NCBI GenBank assembly: GCA_018806915.1 | Contig: JAGKQI010000070.1 | Coordinates: forward strand, 1-64,000 | DNA length: 64,000 nt | Direction: 5' to 3' | Source: Phytophthora colocasiae | Lineage: Eukaryota > Oomycota > Peronosporomycetes > Peronosporales > Peronosporaceae | Shown here: positions 40,883 through 64,000 of the stretch, in pieces | Layout of the letters: each line of letters starts with the position of its first letter | Position numbering within the stretch: the first letter of the stretch is position 1 | Translations under genes and position numbers: made by a program | The notes under the pieces: model-generated | The model's database searches: none | Told to the model about the DNA's origin: nothing | What the model saw: only the letters and a program-made list of their open reading frames with translations

Positions 40883-40924
40883 GCGTCACGCAGACGTTTG
40901 ACGCGAACAGATCATCTTGAAAAT

Positions 40925-43135: not shown

Positions 43136-43149
43136 CTGATGGTGGATTT

Positions 43150-44055: not shown

Positions 44056-44063
44056 CAGAAGGA

Positions 44064-44243: not shown

Positions 44244-44331
44244 CGGGCACCATATTGCGCGCGAGGGGGAAGCAAGAGCTTCAGTAATAAAGATCATTGT
44301 GTACCTAACAGTGCCGTTGAGATGCCTGATG

Positions 44332-44589: not shown

Positions 44590-44613
44590 ACCGTTAGTGG
44601 CGTCGAAATTTGA

Positions 44614-45167: not shown

Positions 45168-45546
45168 TTTTGGGGTCAAACTCTGCACAGGCCAACTCGT
45201 GCGCGGGTCAACTTCTGCGCAACTCCTGTGCAGAGGTTGACCCTTGAAGAGGTCATTATTATATCAAGTAATAAAACTGTAACAAATTATTTTTCTTCCA
45301 CCTGATATTTTTATTTGTTTTTTAGGTGCAAGTTAAAATATATCTTGCTTGCTAGGCAGGGTCAAGAGTACTGACCATTTTCAAAGTGATGCAGCAGTTT
45401 GGACTGCGGACGATGTGAGTACTTCACGTCGCACAAAAAGCAAATGAATTATTGCATTACAAGTACTCAAGTACTAGTCAATCGATCTCGATAAAAAGAG
45501 AGTTGCGCACGAGTTGACCTGCGCAGAGTTTGACCCCCCAAAAAGG
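45168..45546. mobile_element. MITE-like element, about 380 bp (left)
   Basis: Ends are imperfect inverted repeats: ggtcaaactctgcacagg then ccaactcgtgcgc at 45176-45208, and its inverse (gcgcacgagttgacctgcgc, agagtttgacc) at 45505-45540. The outer TTTTTTGGGG/CCCCAAAAAGG is also shared. The left end has a second internal palindromic copy (gtcaacttctgcgcaactcctgtgcagaggttgac). No coding sequence of its own. It lies at the 3' end of the piggyBac pseudogene, and its end supplies that gene's last codons and stop. Confidence 0.6.
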
Positions 45547-48500
45547 ATATCGTCATTGTAAGTGCGCGGACTTGTCGGCGACCTTTCATGCAGAGAAATA
45601 CCGGTCCCATCTGACTGCAGTCACCGCAGAAGTACGACGTCGTTGACACACGCTTGTTGTCGGTGCGCAAGGCAGAACAGACTTTGCACGCTCGTTGACG
45701 TCTCTTGCCTTGTTTGTCCTGATCGCGCCACTCATCGATCTGCCGTGCAGCGTGCTTAGATTGTTGGCTGGGACCAGTTGGCACAGTAGTGTACGCTGGC
45801 GCACTGACATGGACTTGCGAACCGAAGGTGTTTCCTTCGAAGATGTCTGCAGCGCGAAGTTGTGTCAGCTGGCGATGGAGCTTGATCATGTAGCTTAACG
45901 TGCGTCAAGGGCTTCGAGGTCTTGTTCTTGTGGTAGGCCTTGTTGACAATGTAGCTGTTTATAATCGCCAAGTCGATCAGACCAAGCGCTAACGACTTGT
46001 AGTACTTCCGAAAACGGAGTGAGCGCTGGAGAGAGTAGGGTTGCAGCCTTAGATGGTCGTGGACGTCCACACCACCCATAAAGGCGTGGTAGTCTGTCAC
46101 TACTCTGGGGTATGGGACCTCGACTTTCTCCGCACCACCCTGACTGCCAACTCTGTCAAATTCCGTGCTTCCTCCCGTACACAGGAAATGGACAGTTCGC
46201 GAGTCCCACCAACTAATTGCCGCCATATTTGGGACGTGTTTGACCTAGCAACCTTGAACGATCCCCGCTCGATTGAACTGGGCCGGCTTTTCTTCTTCTC
46301 GACGACCTCGTTGCAGTATCCAAACCGGTTCGTCATTTATTGTACCAACGCAGTAAAACCCCATGAGGAGCAGCTGGATGGCCAGTGCCATCGACATGTA
46401 GATTCGATCAATAACAATCAGCCGCATGCCTTGCTTCCGAGCTTCGGGTCCGAACACCACCAGCAAGTTTCTCACCACCGCAGCTGGACCTGACTTCATA
46501 TCAGCCTTGTGAGCATCACTTGCGTGCTGCTTTTACCCGCAGTAAACTTTAAAGCTGTACATATGCAGCATTGTTTCATGGGAAACATATTAGTAAACCG
46601 CATTACTCAGCATAGAGGGAAGTGGAATCCAAAACAAAAACTCACCGAATGCAGTAGGCGGTGAGGCCTCAACACAGCATAAAGAGCTTCGCGCCCCACT
46701 TGTGGGACTTATCCTTTATGTAGACTCTCATCTTGTTGAAGGGCGACCGACTAGGTAGCGCAACTTCATCAAATGCCAGGTGTGAGAGTGCAACATAACC
46801 ACGAGCAAAGGTCCGTTGCAGCACCTCGACAAGCTTCCTTATCTTCCACACGCGGTCTGTCTGCGCTTGAGGATCATTGTTCGGGTTGAAGTGTATGTTT
46901 CGAGAGATCTCCATGAACCGGTCGCGTGCCAGAACCGAACCAAACAGCCTCGCGAAATCGCACCGACGTCAGTTGTCTTCCAATGGCTTGATAGCTTCTC
47001 GCGGTTTGGAGCAATTGTCCTTGCGACCAGTAAGCCGACAAATTGGCAAAGCTCGCAAGGCATGATAGGCTTCATGGATTCAAGCTCTTGCTGAATGTCT
47101 CGGCGAGTCTTGCCGGGGAAGATCAGTGTTACGCTGTTGCTTTTTCCGGTAACGCAAATGCGCAAATACGCAGCTTCAATCCGTAGTGGCAACATCACCC
47201 GATAATACCCGTTTGAACAGACAGCAATATGTTGCCACAACACAACGGGAAGGAAAAAGAAAAACAGCGCCATTGGAGAGTCACCGTGCCGCAATGCCTC
47301 CGCCGTTGAACCCGAATAGCCTTGACGGAAACTGGGGTGGCTGGTCGCGTTGTTGACCGGGTCGTACGGCGCCATCATGTGCTCGTAGACCTGCCTGCTC
47401 GGCGTCCTCCCAACCGGTTGCCGCCATGTCTTGCAGCACCACATCTTGCAGGTTACCCGCAAGCACTTCATCCCTTCTTCCAAAGCTCTCCAAAACGTGA
47501 TCGGCAAAAAGCACTTCAGCGGCAACTTCCGACTTCGTCTCCTCAGGATCATCCACAATGTCATCTGGCATGCATTGAACCCCTGCGCTCTCATCAGAGT
47601 CGTACTTGCCAGTGTCCACGTCATCGTGTTCAGCCTCATCACCCGACCCAATTGCTCCATACTGTTCTTCGTCTTCATCTGCGGCGACAGTATTCAAACC
47701 GTTGTTGTTGTCTGCTAGTAACTCACTGCCCCGTACGCTCAGATCATCTTCATCGTCTTCACATACCAAACACAGAAACAGACGTCAATACTTCGAATCC
47801 GGAAAAAAAATCAGCTTAGATGCAGCTTATGATGCAGCATAAGATGCTACGTACCATCTTGAACTTCAATCGAAGCGACGGAAGCGCCATCGTCGTCTGA
47901 TGTCGTGACGGAAAGATTATCGCCGGCCGTCGGAACCCATGCTGAGTCATCACCCGCGGTCGCTACCGACGCCAGCGATGACGTATCATCGTCCTCTACA
48001 TCCAGTACGTCACGGTCAATGCGAGGTGACGTCGCTATAAGCGGAGAGACTGGTCGAGACCGCGTTGGGGTGGTCTGCAGACAAGAGATCCGCAGTAATT
48101 TGTCAGCTTTGGCGCTGCGCTAGCTTCATGTTGTACTATACATACAACGACACCTGTGTAAATCACGGTATAGATCACAGATAATGACAGGCTTTACCTT
48201 CGGCTTCAACGGCACAGACAGATGCAATCGCAGCCTCTGCACCAATCCGTGAGCTGCCGCGGTTTCTACAGTGTGGGCAAAGTTTGAACGGCGCTGTTGC
48301 AAAGCTGCAATATCACATGCAATATATCATACGGCATTAGATGCAACATAACAGACAGGGTAATATCCAGCATTGTACGTACATCAGTTGCTAGTCGTCG
48401 ACGGGCAGTCGAAACTTCTTGCACGTAGCGGTCACGCACAGCTTGAACTGAAGCTGAAACTGGAGTGTCGTCACTCCCCAACTGCTCTTCTCGATGACGA

Positions 48501-48830
48501 GTAGAGTGGCTTGACGTTCGTGCCGACGCGGCAGCCCGGCTTCTCATCACTGTAGTAAAAAAAAGCATGTAAAATACTGCAGACCAGCAACGCACTTGAT
48601 AAACGTACCATTCGCGTACTACTCCAGCGCACTCTCCTCGCCCAAATGCCAACCGTCCCGTTCGCATGACCCACTGGTCTGATATACTTGTAGCGGTCGT
48701 CCAAGCTCCGACGTGGCGGTGGCTTCCGCGTCCACCCTCTGCCTTCAGCGCTCTTCCACACAGACTTGAAGGACTTCGCTGTCTCGAAGTATCTTGCCAC
48801 GCACGCTCACCATTTCGTGGGTTGACTTGC
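45470..48830 (-). pseudogene. piggyBac-like transposase pseudogene (left)
   Basis: DDD-type cut-and-paste transposase of the PGBD family. Order on the minus strand: N-terminal FKSVW...GWTRKPPPRRSLDDRYKYIRP (48800-48640); Ser/Thr and acidic segments (48450-47530); core start MAPYDPV and ALFFFFLPVVLWQHIAVCSN (47390-47220); LARDRFMEISRNIHFNPNN; first Asp in LAFDEVALPSRSPFNKMRVY; second in IVIDRIYMSMALAIQLLLMG; third in FMGGVDVHDHLRLQPYSLQ; C-terminal Cys-rich finger (ACKVCSALR, YFCGDCS, FLCMKGR). Lesions shared with the right copy: frameshifts near 47405 and 46957, a missing base at the end of LFMLC, and a TAA at 46534-46536. Private lesions: an extra base near 46337 and another near 45895. The N-terminal FKSVWKSAEGRGW is also shifted here. 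The last codons come from a MITE. Confidence 0.9.
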
Positions 48831-49103
48831 GTCCTCCGCCCGCAAATTCTTGAATGAGGCGGATTTAGAAAATTCGGCGGGGGCTGAGCTTTGGGCCACT
48901 CGTTTGGGCAGGAATGGACCTTCTCCTAAAAAATCATACATATCAGCCGCAGCATCCCAAAGTACCTGTTGACTCTAACTTGTGGTCTTGTTGGCGGACA
49001 GGAACGGAAACAAGGTCTTCTCCAAGCAAGTTCGTTTCAAAATTACTGCTCTGCAACCTCAATAGCTCCGTGTGTAGATACTTGGTACAGTCCTGCTATA
49101 AAG
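48831..49103. other. 5' flank of piggyBac, left
   Basis: Between the piggyBac N-terminus and the Tc1 end. It should contain the promoter or start of the piggyBac gene but no ATG in frame with FKSVW is visible, and no TIR is evident. Mirror at 50620-50900. Confidence 0.5.
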
Positions 49104-50619
49104 TATAGACGCACTTGACTTTTTCTTTTCAGTGATAGAGCTGGTGGTTCTAGCGGACGTTACTCTACCTGATGGTGTCTTATACGAAGCCAAACACATA
49201 ACCGAACAGCATTTTTCATCAGAGCAAGTTTTGCGACCGACAGCGGGAAAGTTGGGATCTGGACCTGTTCTAAACTAGGCTTCAACCTAATTTTCTCGGC
49301 AACTCTTTGCTCTTATTGGCTAAAATTGCGCTAGGGATTTACCTCGCATTAGACGGTAGCTAAACCGAAAGCGCGCTCTCAAAACACGGCGACACGATGC
49401 CTCGCGGCAAGAAACTCACGGAGGAGGAGCGCGGAGCGGTAAAAGCCCTCGACGCAGAAGGAAAAAGCTTCCGCTACATAGCTAGAAAACTCACTCGCAG
49501 CGACCAAGCTATTCGCAACGCCCTGAAGCCTCAAACAGCAAAACGCCCCCCCCCCCCCAAAAAAAAAAAAAAAAGCTCGGGAGACCCCCCAAAATCACTA
49601 ATAGCCTGACGAGGCGTGTGTTTCGGTTGGCAACTGTAAAGAAATACACGTCTAAACGGATCTCTGAGGACCTCGGTCGTATTCTCAAGCCTAGTACGGT
49701 GCGAAAACTACTAAACTCAACTCGTTTGGCCACGTGGATCATGAGAAAACCTTGCCCAGCCATCAAGCCTCATCATAAAGTGGCGCGTGCAGCATTCGCG
49801 GCGAAATATTTGAGCGAAACGTCGATGTGGGAGCGTGTCATCTTCAGTGACGAGAAGAAGTTTAATCTAGACGGACCTGATGGGTATCAGTACTACTGGC
49901 ATGACGTCAGGGCTGAGACCGAGTTGTACTCAAAGCGTGCAAGCGGCGGAGGAAGCGTAATGGTATGGGCGGGCGTGCACGCGCACGGAAAATCTGAGAT
50001 CGCCTTCCTGGAGGGAAGACAGGACTCTGTGTGCTACACCCGCACGCTTAACAATTATTTGGCTCCGTTCATCGAGAACCTTCGCCAGGCCCACGGCATC
50101 CAGGATCCTATTTTCCAACAAGACAATGCTTCCATTCACGAGTCGCGTTTCACTAAGGCGCATATTGAAGCTATGGGTATCAAGAAGCTAAAGTGGCTAG
50201 CCAAAAGCCCCGATCTCAACCTCATTGAGAACGTTTGGGGGCAATTGGCGTGGTCAGTCTACCGCGGAGGACGCCAATTTGATAACAAGGATGAGTTGAA
50301 GGCCCAGATTACCCGAAGCTGGGCGGATATAAGTCAACGCTATCTACGCAATCTCGTTGACAGTATGCCAACTCGAATGGCACAAGACGTGCTGAAAACC
50401 GGCGGCCCAATCGACAAGTGAGCTTGCCAGAGCAAAGTGCGTCTATAGTTTAGAACAAGTCCAGATCCCAACTTTCCCGCTGTCGGTCGCAAAACTTGCT
50501 CTGATGAAAAATGCTGTTCGGTTATGTGTTTGTCTTCGTATAAGACACCATCAGGTAGAGTAACGTCCGCTAGAACCACCAGCTCTATCACTGAAAAGAA
50601 AAAGTCAAGTGCGTCTATA
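49104..50619 (+). mobile_element. Tc1-like element at the palindrome centre, 1.5 kb
   Basis: Bounded by tatagacgcacttgac (49104) and gtcaagtgcgtctata (50604-50619), with TA at each tip as expected for Tc1/mariner targets. The terminal inverted repeats are about 174 bp (49104-49277 and 50446-50619). A further agtgcgtctata at the inner edge of the right TIR (50437-50448) repeats the tip motif, the arrangement of IR/DR-type Tc1 elements where transposase sites lie at both ends of each TIR; the left inner copy is lost. The TIRs merge with the arms of the 12-kb inverted duplication, so the element's true edges cannot be fixed by sequence change alone. Confidence 0.7.
49397..50421 (+). pseudogene. 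Tc1-like DD34E transposase, frameshifted
   Basis: Starts MPRGKKLTEEERGAVKALDA with a helix-turn-helix (SFRYIARKLTRSDQAIRNAL). A C13-A16 homopolymer (49546-49574) breaks the frame; after it, the right frame gives GRPPKITNSLTRRVFRLATV, resembling the GRP(R/P)-type basic linker between the two HTH subdomains, then the second HTH (KRISEDLGRILKPSTVRKLL). The catalytic domain is complete: first Asp in IFSDEKKFNLDG, second in FQQDNASIHES, Glu in SPDLNLIENVWGQ, with exactly 34 residues between the last two (DD34E, Tc1 subgroup). The frame ends GGPIDK at 50421. It is the only large single-copy gene between the two arms. The homopolymer shift could be a sequencing error, in which case the gene is intact. 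Confidence 0.9.
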
Positions 50620-50899
50620 CTTTATAGCAGGACTGTACCAAGTATCTACACACGGAGCTATTGAGGTTGCAGAGCAGTAATTTTGAAACGAACTTGCTTG
50701 GAGAAGACCTTGTTTCCGTTCCTGTCCGCCAACAAGACCACAAGTTAGAGTCAACAGGTACTTTGGGATGCTGCGGCTGATATGTATGATTTTTTAAGGG
50801 AGAAGGTCCATTCCTGCCCAAACGAGTGGCCCAAAGCTCAGCCCCCGCCGAATTTTCTAAATCCGCCTCATTCAAGAATTTGCGGGCGGAGGACGCAAG

Positions 50900-53800
50900 T
50901 CAACCCACGAAATGGTGAGCGTGCGTGGCAAGATACTTCGAGACAGCGAAGTCCTTCAAGTCTGTGTGGAGAGAGCTGAAGGCAGAGGGGTGGACGCGGA
51001 AGCCACCGCCACGTCGGAGCTTGGACGACCGCTACAAGTATATCAGACCAGTGGGTCATGCGAACGGGACGGTTGGCATTTGGGCGAGGAGAGTGCGCTG
51101 GAGTAGTACGCGAATGGTACGTTTATCAAGTGCGTTGCTGGTCTGCAGTATTTTTACATGCTTTTTTTTACTACAGTGATGAGAAGCCGGGCTGCCGCGT
51201 CGGCACGAACGTCAAGCCACTCTACTCGTCATCGAGAAGAGCAGTTGGGGAGTGACGACACTCCAGTTTCAGCTTCAGTTCAAGCTGTGCGTGACCGCTA
51301 CGTGCAAGAAGTTTCGACTGCCCGTCGACGACTAGCAACTGATGTACGTACAATGCTGGATATTACCCTGTCTGTTATGTTGCATCTAATGCCGTATGAT
51401 ATATTGCATGTGATATTGCAGCTTTGCAACAGCGCCGTTCAAACTTTGCCCACACTGTAGAAACCGCGGCAGCTCACGGATTGGTGCAGAGGCTGCGATT
51501 GCATCTGTCTGTGCCGTTGAAGCCGAAGGTAAAGCCTGTCATTATCTGTGATCTATACCGTGATTTACACCAGGTGTCGTTGTATGTATAGTACAACATG
51601 AAGCTAGCGCAGCGCCAAAGCTGACAAATTACTGCGGATCTCTTGTCTGCAGACCACCCCAACGCGGTCTCGACCAGTCTCTCCGCTTATAGCGACGTCA
51701 CCTCGCATTGACCGTGACGTACTGGATGTAGAGGACGATGATACGTCATCGCTGGCGTCGGTAGCGACCGCGGGTGATGACTCAGCATGGGTTCCGACGG
51801 CCGGCGATAATCTTTCCGTCACGACATCAGACGACGATGGCGCTTCCGTCGCTTCGATTGAAGTTCAAGATGGTACGTAGCATCTTATGCTGCATCATAA
51901 GCTGCATCTAAGCTGATTTTTTTTCCGGATTCGAAGTATTGACGTCTGTTTCTGTGTTTGGTATGTGAAGACGATGAAGATGATCTGAGCGTACGGGGCA
52001 GTGAGTTACTAGCAGACAACAACAACGGTTTGAATACTGTCGCCGCAGATGAAGACGAAGAACAGTATGGAGCAATTGGGTCGGGTGATGAGGCTGAACA
52101 CGATGACGTGGACACTGGCAAGTACGACTCTGATGAGAGCGCAGGGGTTCAATGCATGCCAGATGACATTGTGGATGATCCTGAGGAGACGAAGTCGGAA
52201 GTTGCCGCTGAAGTGCTTTTTGCCGATCACGTTTTGGAGAGCTTTGGAAGAAGGGATGAAGTTCTTGCGGGTAACCTGCAAGATGTGGTGCTGCAAGACA
52301 TGGCGGCAACCGGTTGGGAGGACGCCGAGCAGGCAGGTCTACGAGCACATGATGGCGCCGTACGACCCGGTCAACAACGCGACCAGCCACCCCAGTTTCC
52401 GTCAAGGCTATTCGGGTTCAACGGCGGAGGCATTGCGGCACGGTGACTCTCCAATGGCGCTGTTTTTCTTTTTCCTTCCCGTTGTGTTGTGGCAACATAT
52501 TGCTGTCTGTTCAAACGAGTATTATCGGGTGATGTTGCCACTACGGATTGAAGCTGCGTATTTGCGCATTTGCGTTACCGGAAAAAGCAACAGCGTAACA
52601 CTGATCTTCCCCGGCAAGACTCGCCGAGACATTCAGCAAGAGCTTGAATCCATGAAGCCTATCATGCCTTGCGAGCTTTGCCAATTTGTCGGCTTACTGG
52701 TCGCAAGGACAATTGCTCCAAACCGCGAGAAGCTATCAAGCCATTGGAAGACAACTGACGTCGGTGCGATTTCGCGAGGCTGTTTGGTTCGGTTCTGGCA
52801 CGCGACCGGTTCATGGAGATCTCTCGAAACATACACTTCAACCCGAACAATGATCCTCAAGCGCAGACAGACCGCGTGTGGAAGATAAGGAAGCTTGTCG
52901 AGGTGCTGCAACGGACCTTTGCTCGTGGTTATGTTGCACTCTCACACCTGGCATTTGATGAAGTTGCGCTACCTAGTCGGTCGCCCTTCAACAAGATGAG
53001 AGTCTACATAAAGGATAAGTCCCACAAGTGGGGCGCGAAGCTCTTTATGCTGTGTTGAGGCCTCACCGCCTACTGCATTCGGTGAGTTTTTGTTTTGGAT
53101 TCCACTTCCCTCTATGCTGAGTAATGCGGTTTACTAATATGTTTCCCATGAAACAATGCTGCATATGTACAGCTTTAAAGTTTACTGCGGGTAAAAGCAG
53201 CACGCAAGTGATGCTCACAAGGCTGATATGAAGTCAGGTCCAGCTGCGGTGGTGAGAAACTTGCTGGTGGTGTTCGGACCCGAAGCTCGGAAGCAAGGCA
53301 TGCGGCTGATTGTTATTGATCGAATCTACATGTCGATGGCACTGGCCATCCAGCTGCTCCTCATGGGGTTTTACTGCGTTGGTACAATAATGACGAACCG
53401 GCTTGGATACTGCAACGAGGTCGTCGAGAAGAAGAAAAGCCGGCCCAGTTCAATCGAGCGGGGATCGTTCAAGGTTGCTAGGTCAAAACACGTCCCAAAT
53501 ATGGCGGCAATTAGTTAGTGGGACTCGCGAACTGTCCATTTCCTGTGTACGGGAGGAAGCACGGAATTTGACAGAGTTGGCAGTCAGGGTGGTGCGGAGA
53601 AAGTCGAGGTCCCATACCCCAGAGTAGTGAAAGACTACCACGCCTTTATGGGTGGTGTGGACGTCCACGACCATCTAAGGCTGCAACCCTACTCTCTCCA
53701 GCGCTCACTCCGTTTTCGGAAGTACTACAAGTCGTTAGCGCTTGGCCTGATCGACTTGGCGATTATAAACAGCTACATTGTCAACAAGGCCTACCACAAG

Positions 53801-54259
53801 AACAAGACCTCGAAGCCCTTGACGCACGTTAAGTACATGATCAAGCTCCATCGCCAGCTGACACAACTTCGCGCTGCAGACATCTTCGAAGGAAACACCT
53901 TCGGTTCGCAAGTCCATGTCAGTGCGCCAGCGTACACTACTGTGCCAACTGGTCCCAGCCAACAATCTAAGCACGCTGCACGGCAGATCGATGAGTGGCG
54001 CGATCAGGACAAACAAGGCAAGAGACGTCAACGAGCGTGCAAAGTCTGTTCTGCCTTGCGCACCGACAACAAGCGTGTGTCAACGACGTCGTACTTCTGC
54101 GGTGACTGCAGTCAGATGGGACCGGTATTTCTCTGCATGAAAGGTCGCCGACAAGTCCGCGCACTTACAATGACGATATCCTTTTTTGGGGGTCAAACTC
54201 TGCGCAGGTCAACTCGTGCGCAACTCTCTTTTTATCGAGATCGATTGACTAGTACTTGA
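50900..54259 (+). pseudogene. piggyBac-like transposase pseudogene (right)
   Basis: Mirror copy reading outwards. Regions: FKSVWRELKAEGWTRKPPPR (50955-51015); Ser-rich segment; acidic 51652-51873 and 51967-52320; core start 52330-52770; LARDRFMEISRNIHF with first Asp in LAFDEV (52776-53058); a canonical 91-nt intron at 53082-53172 (GGTGAGT donor, TACAG acceptor); second Asp in VIDRIYMS (53310-53345); third Asp in MGGVDVHDH (53648-53674); Cys finger at 54030-54150. Shared lesions: frame changes near 52323 and 52770, a missing base at 53054, TAA at 53192-53194. Private lesions: an extra A near 53487 and TAG at 53516-53518 where the left copy reads ISWWDSR. From 53627 it is open to 54259, where the left copy is shifted. 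All three catalytic Asp codons persist although the gene is dead. Confidence 0.9.
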
Positions 54260-54560
54260 GTACTTGTAATGCAATAATTCATTTGCTTTTTGTGCGACGT
54301 GAAGTACTCACATCGTCCGCAGTCCAAACTGCTGCATCACTTTGAAAAATGGTCAGTACTCTTGACCCTGCCTAGCAAGCAAAATATATTTTAACTTGCA
54401 CCTAAAAAACAAATAAAAATATCAGGTGGAAGAAAAATAATTTGTTACAGTTTTATTACTTGATATAATAATGACCTCTTCAAGGGTCAACCTCTGCACA
54501 GGAGTTGCGCAGAAGTTGACCCGCGCACGAGTTGGCCTGCGCAGAGTTTGACCCCAAAAA
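54182..54560. mobile_element. MITE-like element, mirror copy (right)
   Basis: Mirror of 45168-45546 with the same terminal repeats (ggtcaaactctgcgcagg at 54191 and its inverse at 54530-54553). The piggyBac frame enters it at about 54182 and stops at 54259. Confidence 0.6.
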
Positions 54561-55139
54561 AATCGCTCCACAATAACGTGCTGGGATATATGGCACAACG
54601 AGTGGTCAAATGGACAATTGATCCCAGAGCACAAAGTCAATCCGTATCCGTCGGAAGGCGGCTGATATGGCTTCCCCCCATACGGCACGGCTTCCGAGCT
54701 GCCATCGGCTCCTGGTACTCCTGTTTTGCGCAAAAAGCGCTGCACAAGTCCGTAGATGCTAGGCTGCATATTTGGCTGTTAGTAATCTGCATAATATGCG
54801 GCCTTATCGTATATGTGTTACCTTTTGACTAACATTGATCCACGTATCTGCATGTACTACGCTCACTGATAGTTGGTGTGAGATGCACGTTTTCACACGT
54901 TCCAATCCTAAACTAAATCTAGCGCGTTCGTTTCGAAACGATTGGTGGGATGTTGATACACTTGTTTAGATGCATCCTACGAGCACTGGTAAAACAGACC
55001 GTAGTCCAAAACCCAGTGCGTAGAAGTCTACAATGCTGATCAGACAGTATGCTACTCTTCTATTGTACTACAATGGTTCTAAATCCTTTTATTTACACCA
55101 AATTCTGTTACAAATTCAAATTTCGACGCCACTAACGGT
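54561..55139. other. No clear gene (right)
   Basis: Mirror of 44614-45167. The plus-strand frame 54548-54832 is open for 94 codons here but begins inside the MITE end, so it is probably not a gene. Confidence 0.4.
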
Positions 55140-55397
55140 ATGGTAAAGGTAGAGCTGCAAATACAAAAATTCAAGCCAACCAAAAACATCGCGTGTGGCT
55201 ACCGCGGAGAGGCTCCGCAGGAATGGGTGCAATTCCAGAACGAGATCAATGGGAGCAGGCTGCGGATGGTAGCCCGCGGCTACAAGCGTCTTACCGCTCG
55301 GCGCGTGAAGGCGGCGCTCTCCCAGCTGTACTACTATAAGAGAAACGGCTGCTTGAGCATGCCGTTGCTTATCTACCTGCCGCATTGTGGAGAATGA
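55140..55397 (+). CDS. Hypothetical ORF, 85 aa, mirror copy (right)
   Basis: Same protein as 44332-44589 without any change. Identity here, beside many lesions in the nearby piggyBac copies, is only weak evidence for constraint because the segment is short. Confidence 0.4.
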   Translation: MVKVELQIQKFKPTKNIACGYRGEAPQEWVQFQNEINGSRLRMVARGYKRLTARRVKAALSQLYYYKRNGCLSMPLLIYLPHCGE

Positions 55398-55485
55398 CAT
55401 CAGGCATCTCAACGGCACTGTTAGGTACACAATGATCTTTATTACTGAAGCTCTTGCTTCCCCCTCGCGCGCAATATGGTGCCCG

Positions 55486-55665
55486 CTATCGCGCATAATA
55501 CCATCGATATATGCGTTGCCAGTGGGCAAAGGATGTGGTGCCGTCTGTGTCTCGTTTGTGCCTTCGTCCCGTCACCAGATCCTTCCTCCTCCCCTCTGTG
55601 TCAGAGAGCTCGAACGCCCAGTTCTCTCCGTCGTCGTCTGCGTTCAGCAAATGGACGATCTCCAT
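55486..55665 (-). CDS. Small coding-like ORF, mirror copy (right)
   Basis: Same 59-codon frame as 44064-44243; Glu to Gln change in the HWQRIY motif. No stop or frameshift separates the two copies. Confidence 0.35.
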   Translation of the reverse strand: MEIVHLLNADDDGENWAFELSDTEGRRKDLVTGRRHKRDTDGTTSFAHWQRIYRWYYAR

Positions 55666-55673
55666 TCCTTCTG

Positions 55674-56578
55674 CACTTAGGCGACGCTATTTTAATGTAC
55701 GCAACGTAGTTTCTGACGCTCTACACGATGGTACTTGGTAGCACTCCCAAATCTTTTTTTTTGACAAAGTTATTAAATGATAAAGTGATTTTTGTGTGTG
55801 TCAAAATTTCGCCTATGATTGATTATAACTCCACTTCGACATGAAGTCTCCTCGTTCTACATAGATGGATTCAATTTAGAACTTGACGGACTACATGATC
55901 GTACTAAGTAGCATTTCCATATGTTAAGCATCCATAAAGTTATTCAAGTTTAAATATATATACTTATGATTACCAAAACGCCCACTAATCTCGTCATAAG
56001 TTTGGCTATACTTACACCCTATCAAATCTTCTTAGATCGATTTAACGTCACCCAAATTTAATATATGAAGTCAGTATTAGCTTATACAGGTATTTTAAAA
56101 AATATGTCGTTTCTTTCTTTTTCATTGGCTATATCTACCGTGTCCCATTCATGGAAACAATCTACCTTTTCACGCTCTTTCCGACGGTGCATCGTGTGTT
56201 TGCCAGATTTAATGTCTGAATTCAGTATTAGTTTCTACAAAGCGTTTTTATAGTACAGACGTTTTTACTCTACCATTTGCTATATCTACAGTGTCCCTTT
56301 CTTACGCACATCTAAACAATGTACTTTTTCATGCTCTTTCCGATGGTACCTCGCGTCTGCCATATCGTATATGTCAAGTCAGTATTTGCTTAAACAAAGA
56401 GTTTTCAACGTGGAGATGTTATACGGGTGTTCGGCTTGTCTATGCTACATGGGAGTCTTACCATAGCGTTGCTGTGTAGAAATACCCCACCTCACAAATT
56501 TTCGTATAGGGAAGTGAAGTATTGACGAAGTTTTGAAAACTGGCTGATTGGACCGTCTACGACGCACGGTAATAAATC
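55674..56578 (+). mobile_element. Element B end, mirror copy (right arm)
   Basis: Mirror of 43150-44055 with its tip near 55674. In the right arm no opposing B tip is found outside 62715 within the window, because gypsy sequence continues there. Confidence 0.65.
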
Positions 56579-56592
56579 CACCATCAGACACT

Positions 56593-57674
56593 CTAGCGCG
56601 GTGGACATGCGTCACGTAAATACTTCGGCAGTCTGGAATAGTTACATGCTCTTTTTTTAATTTTTTTTTGTCGTCAACCAGCTTCTTGCGTAAGGCACTT
56701 GTCGGGGACACCCAATACACTGACAAATAGTTCGGCTTCTTTCTCCAAGTCTGGTTTATCCGACGCGAGTGCATGTTGCTTCAACAGCTCGAGTCGAAAG
56801 TCCAGAAATGTTGAAAACAAAAGCTCGTACTGTTTTGGCACACACATCATCGCCGGGTCGTAGATGTGTTGTGTCTTATGGCATGGAAGAAGAAAGTAGT
56901 GATCTCGTTTGTTTTCTCCACATTTTCAATAGACATCTGCTGAAGACGCTGAAGACGTTGTGGAGGTGTTGCAACCAAAAAAGTACTACAATATAATCTC
57001 GCACAGCCACGTACATGTCCGCGTCGAATTGTTCATTTTGTCTCCGTGCAATTTGAGCTTCAAACTTCGTTTTGAGATCACCCTTAACCCACGATTGAAA
57101 TTCAGCAAGTGTTGGCATGCCTGCGATGCGGTTAGCTTTATCTTCCATTATTTCTTGTTTCCGCTACTTAGACACCTTGATTGATGTTTCTTTCAGTATC
57201 GTGTACTGATTAGACAAACTCGAAAACTGCTCCATTTTCACAAAAAAATCGAAAAATTTGACCAACGATTTCAGTTGGTTGTACCGGGTTGTTGCAGAGA
57301 GCTCGGTACCAACTTCCGGTTTTCCAAAATGACCGATAACCTCATCCAATACACTAGGAGCAAAAATCTTTGCGAGTCCAGCTTAATGTAACATCGCAAC
57401 ACTTCAGCCAGATTTTTTCCAGACTGCAGCAATTTTCCCAGAGTTGCGCGAAACTTGTTCTCATGGTCTGGTGAACTCGTGCCTCGTTTATGGTTTTGAA
57501 GCGAATTTGGGTCTTTGTACCAGTCGAGAAATTTCTTGCAGCGACCTGTGAGGAGATTCCTTCGCTGAGGTGCTCGGTGGACATTGTCGTCTGTTGCAGG
57601 ACAAAACATTGGTTCAGGTGCAAATGGCTGGGGCCGTTCCACTTCTTCAATCTCGATGGTCTTTAAGTCCTTTG
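56593..57674 (-). pseudogene. Broken unidentified gene, mirror copy (right)
   Basis: Same pieces as the left copy. It differs by a small indel near 57388 (gatgttacattaagc here, gatacacaagc in the left arm), which changes where the frame breaks: here the first frame reads on through EVLRCYIKLDSQRF. It also reads through its C-terminal end (KCIGVSPTSALRKKLVDDKK) where the left copy has a stop. Neither copy is intact. Confidence 0.35.
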
Positions 57675-58840
57675 ACCAACAAGCGCAAATACCCCTACAT
57701 CAACAAACCTAATTCTGCTATTGGGGTATTTTCAATGAAAAATTTGTCTGTTCAAACTTCAACTATCCTTTGCCGTTGACAATACTACGTAGATGTCCGT
57801 AACGTGTCATTTCACGCTCTACACGATGGTACTTGGTAGCACTCCCAAATATTATTTTTTGAAAAATTTATTAAATGTCTAAGTGAATTCTCAAAATTTC
57901 ACCTTTGACTGACCATAACTATACTTAGAGTTGCAGTCTCCTCGCTCTACTAGATGGATTGACTGTACAATTCGACGCGCTACGTTATCGTACTAAAAGA
58001 ATTTCTATATGCCAAGTCTTCGTAAAGTTATCCAAGTTTAAAGGCAAACACACTCAAACTTACTACACATTAATATCACACCAAAACGCCGACTAATCTC
58101 GTCATCCGTTTGGCTATCAAAATTTCTTAGACTGATTTAACGTACTTTCTCATGTTCTTTCCGATGGTATCTCGTGTGTCACCCAGATTTAATATCTGAA
58201 TTTAATATTCGCTTATACAGGCATTTTTTTAAAAAATTGGACGTTTCTTACGCTATCATTGGCTATATCTACAATGTCCCTTTCTTACGCACATGGAAAC
58301 AATGTCATTTATCTTGCTCTTTCCGATGGTACGTTGTGCGTCTGTTGGGTCTTATATCTCAAGTCCGTATTTGCTTATCCAAGGAGGTTTTATCGTGGAG
58401 ATGTTATACGGGTGTTCGTCCTGTCTATGCTACATAGGAGTATTACCATCATATTCGTTGTGTCGAAATACCCTACTACTCTAATTTTTGTGTAATGAAG
58501 TGAAAGTTCTAAAAACCGGTTGATTGGTCCGTCTATGTCATATGGGGGTCTAACCAGCATCTTCCCCTGTTGAAATACACCACCTCACAAGTTTTCGTAT
58601 AGTGAAGTGCAATATTGAGAAAGTTCTGAAAAACGGCTGAATGGACTGTCTATGTCACATAGGATCTCACCATTATTTCTTCCGTGTCGAAATACCCACC
58701 TCACAAGTTTTTGAATAGTGAAGTAAAATATTGACAAATATTGTTTTAAAAAAACTGGCTGATTGGCCCGTCTATACGACATGAGAGTACAGTCATGCAT
58801 TTTCAAGATGATCTGTTCGCGTCAAACGTCTGCGTGACGC

Positions 58841-59380
58841 TTGCGCTCGTTGCTGCCGGCTGCTCAAGACCTTCAACAAGCCATAACTCTTTTGCTTGCA
58901 CCCGAGGATGAACCTCCGCAATTGCTTCGCGACATGTGGCCTTTGAGCGACTCGGACAACGGCCTGACCCGAAGTCAACCGTCAAAGATCGCAGCAACTG
59001 CTTGCGTCAATCGTCGTCCGCCTTCCTTGATCCAAGAATCCTTGAAATCCAGGACTTGCCCGAGCTGCATCATGTCGGCCTTGGGGAAAAACTTGAGCAG
59101 CTTGATCGCCGCGACGTTCTGTTTCTTCGTCTTCGTATGGAGTCTGCCCAGTCCTGGATTTCAAGGATTATTGTATCAAGGAACGTGGACGATGATTGAC
59201 GCAAGCAGTTGCTGCGAGTACGGGGGTACACCTCGCCAAGAAGCCCGCAAGCACGCCAAGGACACCGAGAACGACGAGAACGACGCCGCGAAGGGCAGTA
59301 AAAAAAATTACGAGACGGACGCGAGCAGCGGTGAAAGCTGTGGCGCGACGACCGGCGAGGTCGTGGACATGACGGCTTAA
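58841..59380 (+). CDS. Hypothetical ORF of element A' (right)
   Basis: Mirror of 40343-40882. One base difference changes a residue in the central WSLPSPxFQG stretch (V left, G right). Same doubts apply about whether the N-terminal part is coding. Confidence 0.3.
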   Translation: MRSLLPAAQDLQQAITLLLAPEDEPPQLLRDMWPLSDSDNGLTRSQPSKIAATACVNRRPPSLIQESLKSRTCPSCIMSALGKNLSSLIAATFCFFVFVWSLPSPGFQGLLYQGTWTMIDASSCCEYGGTPRQEARKHAKDTENDENDAAKGSKKNYETDASSGESCGATTGEVVDMTA

Positions 59381-60136
59381 GAAGCGTCGCGTTGGTGTGG
59401 ATGAAAAGGAGTAGGAACAAAGTCGTTAACGAGGCAAAAACAAAAATCTCTATTGTCTAGTATACCCTGGGATATCAAAACTCGACATGAGTGGATCAAC
59501 AATGAGATCGCAGCAGTATTTGACGAAGATGTCGTCGTGCTCAGCTTGCGCTTCTTTGTCGAGGACTCTCCGGAGAGTCTCGATGAGGATCTTATCGACC
59601 GCCGGATGCTTCCTCGTTTTGATTGTGCGTCTGAGATAAATGATTTTTGGTCGTGGCTGCCCTGGAACATGACTATTAGTCCGCAAGATGAAAACAAAAG
59701 CTGAAGCGCATACCTCGTCGAGATCGTCCAGCTTCTTGTCGACTTCAGCACGGGTCGTCGCAATCAGGTCGGCGATGCTCGCATCTGTCTTGGCTTGGAC
59801 TGTTGCGCACTTCCGCTTTGGGTTTTGCGCGTGGAAAATCTTGATCTCCGTGATTTGTCTCTCGTTTTCGCGTCGCGCCAATAGCTGCTTAATCTCTCGC
59901 ATCTGTGGCGAGTCGTCCGGTCGAACTGGAAGACTGCTAAAGATGTTGGATTGGGCTTGAAGTGTCTTCATTGAAGCTCGCTTGAACGCGAGCAGCTCGC
60001 GCATTTCTCGACTGTGAAGCGCCATAAGCTCCCTCAGGTTGGACGACACCATTCTTCGATCCCTCTCTCGCTGTCGTTCGAACCGCTGCCCCATGCGCGC
60101 GAGCTCCACCGTTACGTGCTTGAACTCATCTGTCAC
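59377..60136 (-). CDS. Unidentified coiled-coil protein of element A' (right)
   Basis: Mirror of 39587-40346 with the same GTG-start problem and the same potential 52-nt intron. The translated sequence is identical in both arms over the compared region, in contrast with the diverged piggyBac copies. This could mean recent duplication or gene conversion. Confidence 0.5.
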
Positions 60137-60963
60137 CTCGTCAAAATGATGATCCGTGATCTAGCTGTATGTGATTCACCTTGTGTACCCGTCGGTAGGT
60201 GGGTTACTCTTCCAGGTGACTTCTGAAGAGGTCTTGTTGGCGAAGAATAAGGTCTTGTGTGACGCAGGGGTTTGAGGTAGCGTGGATATGCTTCACTATA
60301 CCGGAAAGAGCAAGACAAATGACATTGTTTCCATGTGCGTAAGAAAGGGACATTGTAGATATAGCCAATGATAGCGTAAGAAACGTCCAATTTTTTAAAA
60401 AAATGCCTGTATAAGCGAATATTAAATTCAGATATTAAATCTGGGTGACACACGAGATACCATCGGAAAGAACATGAGAAAGTACGTTAAATCAGTCTAA
60501 GAAATTTTGATAGCCAAACGGATGACGAGATTAGTCGGCGTTTTGGTGTGATATTAATGTGTAGTAAGTTTGAGTGTGTTTGCCTTTAAACTTGGATAAC
60601 TTTACGAAGACTTGGCATATAGAAATTCTTTTTAGTACGATAACGTAGCGCGTCGAATTGTACAGTCAATCCATCTAGTAGAGCGAGGAGACTGCAACTC
60701 TAAGTATAGTTATGGTCAGTCAAAGGTGAAATTTTGAGAATTCACTTAGACATTTAATAAATTTTTCAAAAAATAATATTTGGGAGTGCTACCAAGTACC
60801 ATCGTGTAGAGCGTGAAATGACACGTTACGGACATCTACGTAGTATTGTCAACGGCAAAGGATAGTTGAAGTTTGAACAGACAAATTTTTCATTGAAAAT
60901 ACCCCAATAGCAGAATTAGGTTTGTTGATGTAGGGGTATTTGCGCTTGTTGGTCAAAGGACTT

Positions 60964-61269
60964 GAAGAAGACGGGGTGAAGTAGATGTAAGGTTAGTTTG
61001 CTTAGGACCGCTGAGGTTCATTAGATTCTAGTATGAAGTAGTCAAAGTTCCCGTGTAGAACTGCAGCTACCACTCATTTACTTGGCGTGTATTACATACT
61101 GGAGGCACAAGTACTGTAATTGGCCTGCTTAGACCTATTAGATAACACATCCACCTTACGTGTATGAGGAAGCGTGCAATTAGAATAGACTTAATTTAAG
61201 TATACTTATTTAAATCAGTATAATTAAATCAAATATAAGCAATCAAACTGCAAAATACCGTAAAATGAG
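60964..61269. other. Non-coding AT-rich spacer (right)
   Basis: Mirror of the left spacer, lying between element A' and the hairpin-tiled segment. No gene seen. Confidence 0.6.
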
Positions 61270-61437
61270 AACTGTTATTGAATTTGGCACAAAGCCAATT
61301 ATGGACCTCCTAAAACTGTTGTTATCTATTTCTAAAGGGTCTACCAACGTGTGGTTGGCAGAAACTCTGCTCTGTGATGGTAGAAATCCGTTACTTTCTA
61401 CCAATGGCATGCACAAATTCACACGAACCACCAAATA

Positions 61438-62752
61438 ATGTGGTTCTCCCATGTAGCCATTGGTGTGTACAGCACACCAAGGTCTGAGGCGCTCCGGGGA
61501 ATCAGGATCAGGCCAATTGAAGGATCGAAGTCGTTGGACTGGCCCCAATTAAGATTCGACGTATCGGGCTCGACACGTCAATTGACAGAACTTGACAGGG
61601 CCGTCAAGTTCCCGAGAGAAATCCGAGTTCATTCTGCGATGAACTCGCCAACGCCCACGTCTCCGTCCGCTACTGCGGACGCGCAAGCCTCCCCTGCTGC
61701 CTCTGCAGCAGGAACAACAACCTCAGCAGTGTCCACTAGCACTGCTGCTTCCAGCGGTTCGACAGAGAAGCTCTCTGTCACCGAGTACCATGCTCTCCAC
61801 AAGGCGAAGCATGAGAAGAAGAAGTCTTCTTCTCTAGCAGAGATTAAGAATCCTGCTGTCCCTCTCAAAGAACTCTTTGGAGAGGACTACGAAGACATTG
61901 TCGACTACGACAACGATGATGTCGAGGAGGGAGAGCTTGTTGTCAAGCATCCCGCTTCCGGGACTTCGTCCCGAAGACACGCCAGACCCACCCGTGATGA
62001 GGCCTCGGACGCTTCAAGCTCGAAGCGTCCGTGCACTGATGACGAAGCGTCCCCCATGTCGAGGGCGCTCACTGCCCCGCGCACTGATCCGCCAGTGCGC
62101 GCACCATTGATGCCTACTGAGGCAGAAATCCATGACCGGTTCGGTGCTAGTTCACCACCGAACCCGATACTGTTGTACGCATGCAACAGTATCAACGACG
62201 ACGACGTCGCCGCTGAGGTTGTCTTTGAGTCCGAGACTCAAAGACGCGACTACTATATTGGGCTCTTCCATGAGCTCCGATACTATGCAGCGAAGAAGAC
62301 TTCGCGCAAGAGCAAAGTGCCAGAGTGGCAGGCACTTTGTCAGTCGTGGAACGCCTTTGTTGATAACTTCAACAAAGACCCGAAGGCATATCGCGAGCGC
62401 GTTGCTGCGGCTCGCGATCGCTACTACACTTACACTACACGTGGTAAGTGTGAACGCCTCCATGATCAGTCCATGGAAGCGGGGATCCCATGTGCCGTTC
62501 TCTTTGAACACCCTGCCCGTGTTGCCAACCCTTGGCAACACGTCTCACCGAAAGTGATCTCCTGGGGTACACGGTCGTCCGTGTACCCGATTACATCAAG
62601 GAGCTCCGTGGTCGTATTGTGCCACGCGAAGCTCCGAGTGCTGTGGCTGACCGCAGCACTCCTCGTGCAGGGTTTAACCCTGCAAGTTATGGTGGGCTTC
62701 GTACGCCCTCACCATTTCCGGAACGTCCTCCATCAGGACGTTCCGCGGCCCC
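61438..62752 (+). pseudogene. Gag-like ORF, right copy, with two -1 frame changes
   Basis: The best start may be 61639 (MNSPTPTSPS) rather than 61438: the upstream 67 codons look like leader sequence and the 21 bp containing this ATG are missing from the left copy. Order of regions: Ala/Ser/Thr-rich; basic (KHEKKKSS); acidic (DIVDYDNDDVEEGE); a middle region with EIHDRFG and YYIGLFHELRYYAAKK; then RVAAARDRYYTYTTRGKC. The coding quality moves to the -1 frame around 62521-62532 (ATRLTESDLLGYTVVRVPDY) and to another -1 frame around 62745 (62753-63166, coiled coil). Both changes sit beside perfect hairpins. They are shared with the left copy where present, so they predate the duplication. Decay is the default explanation; recoding is possible. 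No homology could be searched. Confidence 0.5.
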
Positions 62753-64000
62753 ATGTATCTCGATGGGGAGGAAATCCTCTCCAACGAATACGAAAACGAA
62801 CCCCTTGAGAGTTCGTTCTCTTATGAGCCACGATCCGCTCCACAATCCAGCGGATCGCTCCACGCGCGTCGCGCAACGGCGGCGGAGGGGGTGGGAACAC
62901 TCCCTCCGCATGGTCAACGCTATGACCATGACGATCGTGCCCTGCACGATCGAGTTGCTGCGCTGGAGCAGACACAGAGCGCTGAGATAGCTGCTCTGAA
63001 GCAGGAGGTTCGTGTCCTCCGTGCTGAGGTCTGCGAGGCAGCTCAGACTGCCTCGAACCTCTCGTCCGGTCTTGGTACGAGAGTGAACCAGTTGATCGAT
63101 CGTGTCGACTGTCTCGAGAAGGCCTTCCAGGCCTCTCGCACTCCTCAGTCGGACTACCAACCCTAGGTAGTCCGTGCTGCACGTACGGCTTCAACCGCCC
63201 GACGTAGAAGGTCGGGTGGAGTCTCATGCTGGACGATATGTCCAGCCGGTACGCGTTGCCGTGCCGTTCAAGTACTTTGAACGGCCCAATGAATCTTGGA
63301 GCAAGCTTGCTTGCTCCAAAGTCAGACACTGCATGTCTAGGTAGGTTTTGTGTAGCTAACAAAACTAATGAACCCTTTTCGAATTCATTTGTGTTGCCTC
63401 TACCAACAGTATCAGCGTTCAGCTTCTGTCGATCGACAGAAGCTGCGATAGCATCCTGGACAAACCGTATGACGGCTTGTCTTCGCTGGACAAAGTCTAG
63501 CGCACCCGAGCTGAATCCTTTCAGCTTGTCGCCCTTGTCAGCAGCAGGCCCTGCCTGCTCGCTATCATCTCTCATGTCTGTGCCCGGCACAGACATCGCG
63601 CGCTCGTTCCTGATAGAACGAGACGTCGCACGCGTCACCGCAGCTGATAGTGTGCTGCTATCAGTTGCATTCTGCGGTTGTTCGGACGCAACCGTAGATC
63701 CTCCCCCACTTAAGGAGGAAGCTACCCCGCCGAGCATGCTCGGCAATCGTGGATGCCTCATGGCGTTCACGTAGAACGGTGTATGCCCTGTCGAGGCATG
63801 CACCGAGTTGTTGATGGCAAACTCTGCCATCGGCAAGCACTCGCTCCAATGCGGGAACGAGTGAGCGTAGCTCTTCAACGTGTCACCCAATACACGGTTG
63901 ACACGTTCGGTCTGTCCGTCCGTCTGCGGATGATCCGCAGTCGACATTGATAACTGCGAACCAAGAAGTGTAAACACTTCTTGCCAGAACCGCGCTGTGA
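62733..64000 (-). CDS. Ty3/gypsy pol C-terminus: integrase and chromodomain (partial)
   Basis: Open from the window edge (frame continues above 63977 as ARFWQEVFTLLGS) down to a stop at 62733. The visible part starts inside the integrase core: HPQTDGQTERVNR carries the Glu of the D,D35E triad, followed by SECLPMAEFAINNSVHASTG and TPFYVN, the usual core end. A long Ser/Thr/Ala linker follows. The GPF/Y module is seen as LAPRFIGPFKVLERHGNAYR, then LHPTFYVGRLKPY. A Pro/Arg/Gln-rich linker leads to a chromodomain (RWIVERIVAHK, FRIRWRGFPPHRDTW) cut short by GRGTS and a stop, so its last helix is missing. Reverse transcriptase, RNase H and the first two acidic residues lie outside the window. The chromodomain targets chromovirus integration to marked chromatin in known families. 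The DNA is heavily hairpin-tiled. Confidence 0.85.
   Translation of the reverse strand, partial: TARFWQEVFTLLGSQLSMSTADHPQTDGQTERVNRVLGDTLKSYAHSFPHWSECLPMAEFAINNSVHASTGHTPFYVNAMRHPRLPSMLGGVASSLSGGGSTVASEQPQNATDSSTLSAAVTRATSRSIRNERAMSVPGTDMRDDSEQAGPAADKGDKLKGFSSGALDFVQRRQAVIRFVQDAIAASVDRQKLNADTVGRGNTNEFEKGSLVLLATQNLPRHAVSDFGASKLAPRFIGPFKVLERHGNAYRLDISSSMRLHPTFYVGRLKPYVQHGLPRVGSPTEECERPGRPSRDSRHDRSTGSLSYQDRTRGSRQSELPRRPQHGGHEPPASEQLSQRSVSAPAQQLDRAGHDRHGHSVDHAEGVFPPPPPPLRDARGAIRWIVERIVAHKRTNSQGVRFRIRWRGFPPHRDTWGRGTS
62753..63166 (+). CDS. Coiled-coil ORF antisense to gypsy pol
   Basis: A 137-codon ORF starting MYLDGEEILSNEYENE. Residues about 64-125 give a credible coiled coil (RVAALEQTQSAEIAALKQEV, then VNQLIDRVDCLEKAF) and the frame stops after SDYQP. 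It lies in the frame that would continue the gag-like protein after a second -1 change, so it may be the C-terminal coiled coil of that protein. It lies entirely opposite the linker and chromodomain of the minus-strand pol ORF, which is recognisable by family. At most one strand is likely to be under strong protein constraint; the hairpin-rich DNA makes both strands look coding. Confidence that it is translated is low to moderate. Confidence 0.35.
   Translation: MYLDGEEILSNEYENEPLESSFSYEPRSAPQSSGSLHARRATAAEGVGTLPPHGQRYDHDDRALHDRVAALEQTQSAEIAALKQEVRVLRAEVCEAAQTASNLSSGLGTRVNQLIDRVDCLEKAFQASRTPQSDYQP

What the first reader, a model, noticed from the sequence alone, without database searches (positions are those of the whole stretch)
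61270..64000. Retroelement sequence tiled end to end by short perfect hairpins
From the leader through the gag-like ORF into gypsy pol, perfect inverted repeats with stems of 7-13 bp and loops of 0-9 nt follow one another about every 25-40 bases. Examples: a loopless 26-bp palindrome at 63420-63445; 11-bp stems at 62221-62245, 62719-62745 and 63574-63596; 10-bp stems at 62565-62588, 63296-63319 and 63962-63983. For stems of 8 bp or more and loops of 0-9, chance expects roughly 10 x 2700/65536, about 0.4; I counted over 20. Neighbouring piggyBac, Tc1 and satellite DNA do not show it. The hairpins cross codon frames, strands and non-coding leader, so protein coding alone cannot cause them. One hypothesis: repeated template switching during reverse transcription converts quasi-palindromes into perfect ones. 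Another: selection for RNA structure in packaging, frameshifting or evasion of silencing.
Basis: partly seen in the sequence, partly recalled or inferred. Interest (0 to 1): 0.9.

Follow-up and report, generated by a model that had tools for sequence, protein, structure and literature searches.

The report
Retrotransposon genome studded with perfect hairpins
A jumping gene in a Phytophthora-like genome carries about a hundred short, perfectly self-pairing hairpins along its length, written into its protein genes by codon choice and apparently kept there by natural selection, which may shield its transcripts or DNA copies from the host.

Summary
Window 61270-64000 has 32 perfect stems of 8 bp or more (loop up to 9) against 0.4 in dinucleotide shuffles. 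The segment is the 3' end of an 8.2-kb chromodomain Ty3/gypsy element on the minus strand; the "gag-like" ORF is an antisense ORF between pol and the 3' LTR. The whole copy carries 102 hairpins (0.97 expected); 19 of 19 copies read show the excess.

Codon choice writes the hairpins: 77 in coding sequence against 2.9 after synonymous-codon shuffling. Synonymous variants seen in one copy are as common in stems as elsewhere; those shared by two or more copies are 2.6-4.2 times rarer in stems, as under purifying selection on pairing. G-U is not tolerated better than A-C, so sense-RNA folding alone is an unlikely target. Ongoing template-switch conversion left no clear trace.

A second gypsy group has similar hairpins at other sites with compensatory changes; a third has 4-6 bp stems with 3-4 nt loops.

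Best reading: selected hairpins that count on both strands. Evasion of silencing is the likeliest purpose, by inference only.

The parts
61107..64000 (-). 3' part of a full-length Ty3/gypsy copy that continues to contig position 69344 (C62), sense on the minus strand
61107..61549 (-). 3' LTR of the copy (edges approximate); 91% identical to its own 5' LTR over 384 bp and without a match to the first ~80 bp of it, unlike other copies
61640..63166 (+).
   Evidence: 564 homologous proteins, 120 listed; no Pfam family above cut-off
62733..63998 (-). C-terminal integrase part of pol with Tf2-1-like SH3 and chromodomain; frame runs on to contig position 64574
61378..63983 (.). Set of 37 perfect hairpins in the window copy (stem >=8, loop <=16): 61378-61403, 61460-61480, 61588-61611, 61624-61647, 61693-61712, 61724-61747, 61761-61779, 61813-61834, 61817-61833, 62006-62031, 62078-62101, 62138-62164, 62166-62193, 62221-62245, 62313-62339, 62355-62377, 62390-62418, 62426-62451, 62518-62542, 62565-62588, 62636-62661, 62666-62684, 62719-62745, 62831-62857, 62882-62909, 62909-62930, 62932-62952, 63034-63055, 63150-63174, 63263-63285, 63296-63319, 63420-63445, 63574-63596, 63729-63744, 63877-63907, 63924-63940, 63962-63983
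63420..63445 (.). Longest hairpin: 13-bp stem, no loop (26-bp palindrome)
62221..62245 (.). Hairpin, 11-bp stem, 3-nt loop
62518..62542 (.). Hairpin, 11-bp stem, 3-nt loop
62719..62745 (.). Hairpin, 11-bp stem, 5-nt loop
63296..63319 (.). Hairpin, 11-bp stem, 2-nt loop
63574..63596 (.). Hairpin, 11-bp stem, 1-nt loop
61813..61834 (.). Hairpin, 10-bp stem, 2-nt loop
62006..62031 (.). Hairpin, 10-bp stem, 6-nt loop
62166..62193 (.). Hairpin, 10-bp stem, 8-nt loop
62565..62588 (.). Hairpin, 10-bp stem, 4-nt loop
63962..63983 (.). Hairpin, 10-bp stem, 2-nt loop
37026..38084 (+). Inverted partial second copy of the element's antisense-ORF region (element sense on plus); the 2 kb from 36000 hold 13 hairpins

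Best explanation
A canonical chromodomain Ty3/gypsy retrotransposon family whose nucleic acid is under selection to form many short local hairpins (stem mostly 8-11 bp, span mostly 17-29 nt) along the element. Shown: the hairpins are far beyond chance, are encoded by synonymous codon choice on top of conserved protein, occur in 19 of 19 copies read, and synonymous variants shared between copies are depleted in stems while singletons are not. Shown: wobble pairing is not preferred on the sense strand, so the two strands look alike. Shown: hairpin positions are not kept between related families. Inferred: what matters is self-structure as such, not a motif at a given place. Inferred and only moderately likely (about one in three on its own): because sense and antisense molecules both fold into hairpins too short to be dicing substrates, the element hinders annealing of its sense and antisense transcripts, or the loading and targeting of small RNAs, and so blunts RNA silencing.
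For: 102 hairpins against 0.97 in shuffles; 77 against 2.9 in synonymous-codon shuffles; local folding energy 26.8 (sense) and 27.7 (antisense) standard deviations below 30 synonymous shuffles in PR-RT-RH of L011. Singleton synonymous variants stem/other ratio 0.82-0.96 (not significant), shared ones 0.24-0.38 (p 1.7e-3 to 1.5e-5), with five defining copies drawn from the same 19; with stems pooled over copies, a conservative choice, 0.44 for shared (p 4.8e-4) and 0.95 for singletons. Second group: 12 compensatory variants over 307 pairs against 2, 3, 1, 0, 1, 3 in slid controls. One-mismatch stems with >=9 pairs: 14 A-C, 6 G-U, 10 other; no G-U excess at stem ends. Gypsy-matching small RNAs in both orientations in P. 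infestans (passages of PMC3522703). 21- and 25-mers of both strands are more self-structured than in 5 shuffles.
Against: Within this family compensatory double changes are rare (2 shared and 1 single against 56 shared one-sided variants). Lower reverse-transcription error in stems could mimic the depletion; p values count weighted opportunities and ignore phylogeny and recombination. Nonsynonymous singletons are also somewhat fewer in stems (0.72-0.79). In the second group stem columns vary only slightly less than others (0.175 against 0.205). Spacing is near random, so coverage is not even. In P. infestans the Northern signals for Gypsy Pi-1a were 35 and 40 nt, not 21-26. No expression, structure-probing or silencing data exist here; the silencing step is untested.
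Confidence: 0.5

Rival explanations
1. Mutational origin: reverse transcriptase (or a host polymerase) repeatedly switches template at quasi-palindromes, copying one arm onto the other, so perfect hairpins accumulate without a function.
For: Stems are strictly Watson-Crick, positions turn over, spacing is near random. The mechanism is known for quasi-palindromes in yeast (abstract of PMC3820800) and is proposed for nematomorph mitochondria (discussion of PMC6649704). Two of 9 rare hairpins come with clusters of changes. In L030 the arms differ somewhat more than the null (0.211 against 0.176, 5' arm more derived in 13 of 18).
Against: Shared synonymous variants are depleted in stems while singletons are not; mismatches are mended at about chance rate (7 of 17); many one-mismatch stems persist (30 with >=9 pairs, about 1.2 expected); loop inversions 2 of 118; no arm asymmetry in this family or in L031 and L033.
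Confidence: 0.2
2. Selection on the sense genomic RNA only: packaging, compaction or innate-sensor evasion as in viral genome-scale ordered RNA structure.
For: Predicted folding far below shuffles; depletion of variants in stems; analogy with PMC3950689 (abstract).
Against: G-U, which pairs in RNA, is tolerated no better than A-C: 6 against 14, 24 against 20 among shared variants, 15 against 23 in the second group; no G-U excess at stem ends; no excess of pairs with loops beyond about 16 nt.
Confidence: 0.15
3. Selection at DNA level: hairpins form in single-stranded cDNA or as cruciforms and help reverse transcription, strand transfer, protection of cDNA or chromatin state.
For: Strand-symmetric, Watson-Crick only, short span.
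Against: No direct evidence; it does not say why DNA transposons next door lack the excess unless the cDNA stage is meant.
Confidence: 0.14
4. Chance, codon bias or an assembly artefact.
For: None found.
Against: Dinucleotide and synonymous shuffles; the excess in 19 copies on many contigs; long open frames in L011.
Confidence: 0.01

Closest known systems
[quoted passage not shown] abstract read)
   Same: Structure throughout a genome, far beyond shuffled controls.
   Different: Here perfect Watson-Crick hairpins of short span, no wobble preference, equal on both strands, in a retrotransposon.
Coding palindromes in mitochondrial genes of Nematomorpha (PMC6649704; abstract and discussion read)
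   Same: Perfect inverted repeats inside protein genes, both arms coding conserved residues, gained and lost between relatives.
   Different: Here much shorter (longest stem 13 bp against repeats up to 284 bp) and about 12 per kb; a clear excess of imperfect stems, which that paper says is missing there; variation among copies points to selection on pairing.
Ty3/gypsy chromodomain LTR retrotransposons (class label from Pfam hits and recall)
   Same: LTRs, gag with CCHC, protease, RT, RNase H, integrase, SH3, chromodomain.
   Different: Hairpins written throughout; antisense ORF before the 3' LTR.
Antisense additional ORFs of plant elements such as Grande, RIRE2, Retand (PMC7264820; abstract read)
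   Same: ORF antisense to gag-pol between pol and the 3' LTR.
   Different: Other host lineage and a chromodomain element; homology to plant ORFs not tested.
Quasi-palindrome template switching (PMC3820800; abstract read)
   Same: Would yield perfect inverted repeats from imperfect ones.
   Different: Expected signatures not clearly seen among copies.

Membership tests
Ty3/gypsy chromodomain LTR retrotransposon | Gag with zinc knuckle | tested here: met
   Retrotrans_gag, Ty3_capsid, zf-CCHC in L011
Ty3/gypsy chromodomain LTR retrotransposon | Protease, RT, RNase H, then integrase and chromodomain | tested here: met
   RVP_2, RVT_1, RT_RNaseH, rve, SH3_Tf2-1, Chromo above cut-offs
Ty3/gypsy chromodomain LTR retrotransposon | Two LTRs | tested here: met
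   About 460 bp; window copy's pair aligns over 384 bp at 91%
Ty3/gypsy chromodomain LTR retrotransposon | tRNA primer binding site, target-site duplication | not tested
   LTR edges were printed but no PBS or TSD test was made
Genome-scale ordered RNA structure | Folding energy of the genome far below shuffled controls | tested here: met
   z -26.8 sense, PR-RT-RH of L011, 30 synonymous shuffles; other parts not folded
Genome-scale ordered RNA structure | Structure acts as RNA (my expectation: G-U tolerated better than A-C on the genomic strand) | tested here: not met
Genome-scale ordered RNA structure | Association with persistence or evasion of host sensing | not testable with these tools
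   Needs experiments
Nematomorph-type coding palindromes | Both arms code conserved residues, perfect repeats | tested here: met
Nematomorph-type coding palindromes | No excess of imperfect repeats | tested here: not met
   30 one-mismatch stems with >=9 pairs, about 1.2 expected
Nematomorph-type coding palindromes | Long repeats (up to 284 bp) | tested here: not met
   Longest stem 13 bp
Quasi-palindrome template switching | Mismatches mended to the other arm; clustered one-arm changes | tested here: not met
   7 of 17 changes to Watson-Crick; 7 of 9 rare hairpins by one substitution; arms not asymmetric except a hint in L030
Retand/Grande/RIRE2-type antisense additional ORF | ORF antisense to gag-pol between pol and 3' LTR | tested here: met
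Retand/Grande/RIRE2-type antisense additional ORF | Sequence homology to plant antisense ORFs | not tested
   No plant sequence compared

The most novel reading that the evidence does not exclude
A lineage of retrotransposons has evolved a generic 'hairpin armour': its sequence, on both strands, is recoded by synonymous choice so that sense RNA, antisense RNA, cDNA and any small RNA cut from either strand fold onto themselves in units of about 23 nt, too short for Dicer but enough to block annealing and guide loading. Each family rebuilds the armour at new positions and with its own hairpin size.
Probability: 0.25. Interest if true: 0.95.

Novelty: new variant of a known kind. Interest (0 to 1): 0.8.

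Why it matters
If selection writes a hairpin about every 80 bases into a transposon through codon choice, on both strands alike, then transposons can resist host recognition by the physical form of their nucleic acid and not only by proteins. This can be tested in an organism group whose small RNAs against Gypsy elements are already documented (PMC3522703). It also means that synonymous sites in such transposons are not neutral, which affects dating by synonymous divergence. Even if the function proves different, related families with different hairpin sizes in one genome are a natural experiment on why genomes acquire structure.

Tried and rejected
Chance and codon bias: rejected by shuffles. 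Local oddity of one copy: rejected, 19 of 19 copies read have it. Loop flip-flop inversion: 2 of 118 loop variants. One arm overwritten: no asymmetry in this family (33 hairpins, 0.154 against null 0.149), L031 or L033, but a hint in L030. Regular tiling: spacing close to random, one of six tests at p 0.02. A fixed-span 'ruler': stem and loop length are negatively correlated, but inward extension by chance pairs (stem +1, loop -2) creates such a correlation by itself, so I do not use it. Lower divergence of stems in two-copy comparisons and the raw 1.2% against 3.3% are inflated by defining stems in one copy; I rely on the matched test. For the third family (C) the two-fold lower stem divergence is within that bias, so no selection is claimed for it. 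Codon-phase preference of hairpins: no consistent pattern, not used.

I had no collection with DNA of named Phytophthora species. Copia and random-genome stretches could not be fetched; LINEs were not tried. Literature: the searches listed no paper on hairpin-studded retrotransposons that I could recognise from title and abstract start; only open-licence papers are held.
Full report
What was checked. The window is G000:C62:1-64000 of a 92.5-Mb assembly in 105 contigs. In 61270-64000 there are 32 perfect inverted repeats with stem >=8 bp and loop 0-9; 100 dinucleotide shuffles give 0.4 on average and 2 at most.

What it is. The stretch belongs to a full-length element at C62:61107-69344 whose pol is on the minus strand. 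In a better-preserved copy (L011) the order is gag with CCHC, protease, RT, RNase H, integrase, SH3, chromodomain, with LTRs of about 460 bp. It has 564 homologous proteins at E <= 0.001, of which 120 were listed, and no Pfam family above its cut-off in the frames and homologues scanned. Antisense additional ORFs at this place are known in plant elements (abstract of PMC7264820).

Extent. In this copy 102 hairpins (stem >=8, loop <=9) were found against 0.97 in shuffles, and 37 with stem >=10 against 0 in 20 shuffles. The genome search scored 40 of 312 candidates and listed 44 matches, of which 40 are long, two of them in the window. I read 19 copies (L009, L011-L028). Each carries the excess; it falls off at the element's ends, except where further partial copies lie alongside. 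Excess pairs have loops of 0 to about 16 nt; beyond that counts are near expectation. The DNA-transposon part of the window has no excess of stems >=8 (3, about 4.4 expected); the first 16 kb has 8 with about 3.4 expected, and L010 (the 10 kb from 70 kb) 10 with about 1.2 expected, a mild excess of unknown source.

How it is written. In the coding sequence of L011 there are 9, 52 and 16 hairpins (loop <=16) in gag, PR-RT-RH and integrase up to the antisense overlap, against 0.3, 2.0 and 0.6 when synonymous codons are shuffled (200 shuffles). Predicted local folding energy in PR-RT-RH is 26.8 (sense) and 27.7 (antisense) standard deviations below 30 synonymous shuffles; for one locus of each other group the values are -3.0/-3.5 (L032) and -6.7/-8.1 (L033), both stretches containing stops. 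Stems lie in sequence as similar to other families as the rest (0.627 against 0.622, 33 hairpins).

Selection. I compared variants among the 19 copies at coding sites covered by at least ten, always requiring that the copy used to define hairpins carries the commonest base, so that stems and other sites are treated alike. With five defining copies in turn (not independent, as they come from the same 19), synonymous variants found once are as frequent in stems as elsewhere (ratio 0.82-0.96, none significant). Synonymous variants shared by two or more copies are depleted (ratio 0.24-0.38, p between 1.7e-3 and 1.5e-5), and against the adjacent loop and flank sites p is 6e-5 or less. With stems pooled over copies the shared ratio is 0.44 (p 4.8e-4) and the singleton ratio 0.95. 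Nonsynonymous singletons are slightly fewer in stems (0.72-0.79) and shared ones 0.51-0.72. Mutations thus reach stems but rarely survive retrotransposition there. Caveats: reverse transcriptase might err less often in stems, and nothing was corrected for phylogeny or recombination.

Which molecule. Stems show no wobble preference. Among stems with one mismatch and >=9 Watson-Crick pairs there are 14 A-C, 6 G-U and 10 other. Among shared one-sided stem variants in this family there are 20 A-C, 24 G-U and 12 other; in the second group 23 A-C, 15 G-U and 13 other. Stem ends show no G-U excess. Since sense G-U is antisense A-C, this symmetry speaks for both strands or for DNA, not for sense RNA alone.

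Template switching. Quasi-palindrome conversion predicts mended mismatches, one overwritten arm and clustered changes. Mismatches carried by the majority of copies at 47 sites changed to a Watson-Crick pair in 7 of 17 changes, about chance. Loop variants are inversions in 2 of 118. Of 146 hairpin centres, 9 occur in at most 10% of copies; 7 of these arose from one substitution and 2 come with several changes. Arms are not asymmetric in this family; in L030 there is a hint. Compensatory double changes within this family are few: 2 shared and 1 single. Conversion in the deeper past is not excluded.

Other families. Eight copies of a second gypsy group (85-100% identical) have 44 distinct hairpin centres (stem >=7) and 12 compensatory variants over 307 pairs, against 2, 3, 1, 0, 1 and 3 in six slid controls; stem columns vary only slightly less than others there (0.175 against 0.205). 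Eleven loci of this group (L030-L032, L037-L044) have 2.4-3.8 hairpins per kb. A third family (L029, L033, L034, 90-97% identical and so not independent) has few long stems but a strong peak of 4-6 bp stems with 3-4 nt loops: 123 observed against 35 expected for 4 bp/3 nt, and 85 against 9 for 5 bp/3 nt. Between families hairpin places are not kept: of this copy's hairpins that align fully, 1 of 27 is still perfect in L030, 0 of 24 in L031 and 1 of 23 in L033.

Mechanism. Shown: structure beyond chance, codon-encoded, strand-symmetric, short-range, not kept in place between families. Supported by variation: selection on pairing. Inferred: function. P. infestans has small RNAs of several sizes, including 21 and 25/26 nt, and they map along Gypsy elements in both orientations; the Northern signals for Gypsy Pi-1a were 35 and 40 nt (passages of PMC3522703). 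Hairpins of 8-13 bp are, from general knowledge, too short for dicing, and they give both sense and antisense molecules self-structure: 23% of 21-mers of either strand have a folding energy of -5 or below, against 12% in 5 shuffles. I therefore commit to evasion of dsRNA formation or small-RNA action as the likeliest purpose, at roughly one in three, with a DNA/cDNA role next.

Compared with what is known. It works like genome-scale ordered RNA structure (abstract of PMC3950689), but the expected wobble tolerance is missing. It resembles the coding palindromes of nematomorph mitochondria (abstract and discussion of PMC6649704) but differs in size, in the excess of imperfect stems and in the evidence for selection. 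I recognised no paper on it in the listings.

Noticed in passing
37026-49277 and 50446-62716: A large inverted duplication: two arms of about 12 kb, matching piecewise at 98-100% with about 1.2 kb between them, that ends inside the hairpin-rich element.
   Followed up: no
16812-35406: A satellite array with units of about 830 bp, 22 copies per repeat family listed, many at 99-100% identity.
   Followed up: no
L029, L033, L034: A third gypsy family with its own hairpin size class: 4-6 bp stems and 3-4 nt loops, many times expectation.
   Followed up: partly
61640-63166 (+): The antisense ORF belongs to a protein family widespread in Phytophthora records (564 hits, 120 listed) without a Pfam match above cut-off.
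   Followed up: partly
61107-61549: The window copy's 3' LTR is only 91% identical to its 5' LTR over 384 bp and has no match to its first ~80 bp, unlike the other copies looked at; recombination or an older LTR is possible.
   Followed up: no
L035, L036: Contigs CAKZGI010000293.1 and CAKZGI010000417.1 of a bacterial metagenome bin carry Ty3/gypsy pol, which looks like eukaryotic contamination.
   Followed up: no
L010: The 10 kb from 70 kb on the same contig has 10 stems >=8 with about 1.2 expected; the source was not identified.
   Followed up: no
element-wide, window 61107-64000: Loops vary most of all among copies: shared variants at 10% of loop sites against 2% in stems and 4% far from hairpins (stems defined in the window copy).
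   Followed up: partly
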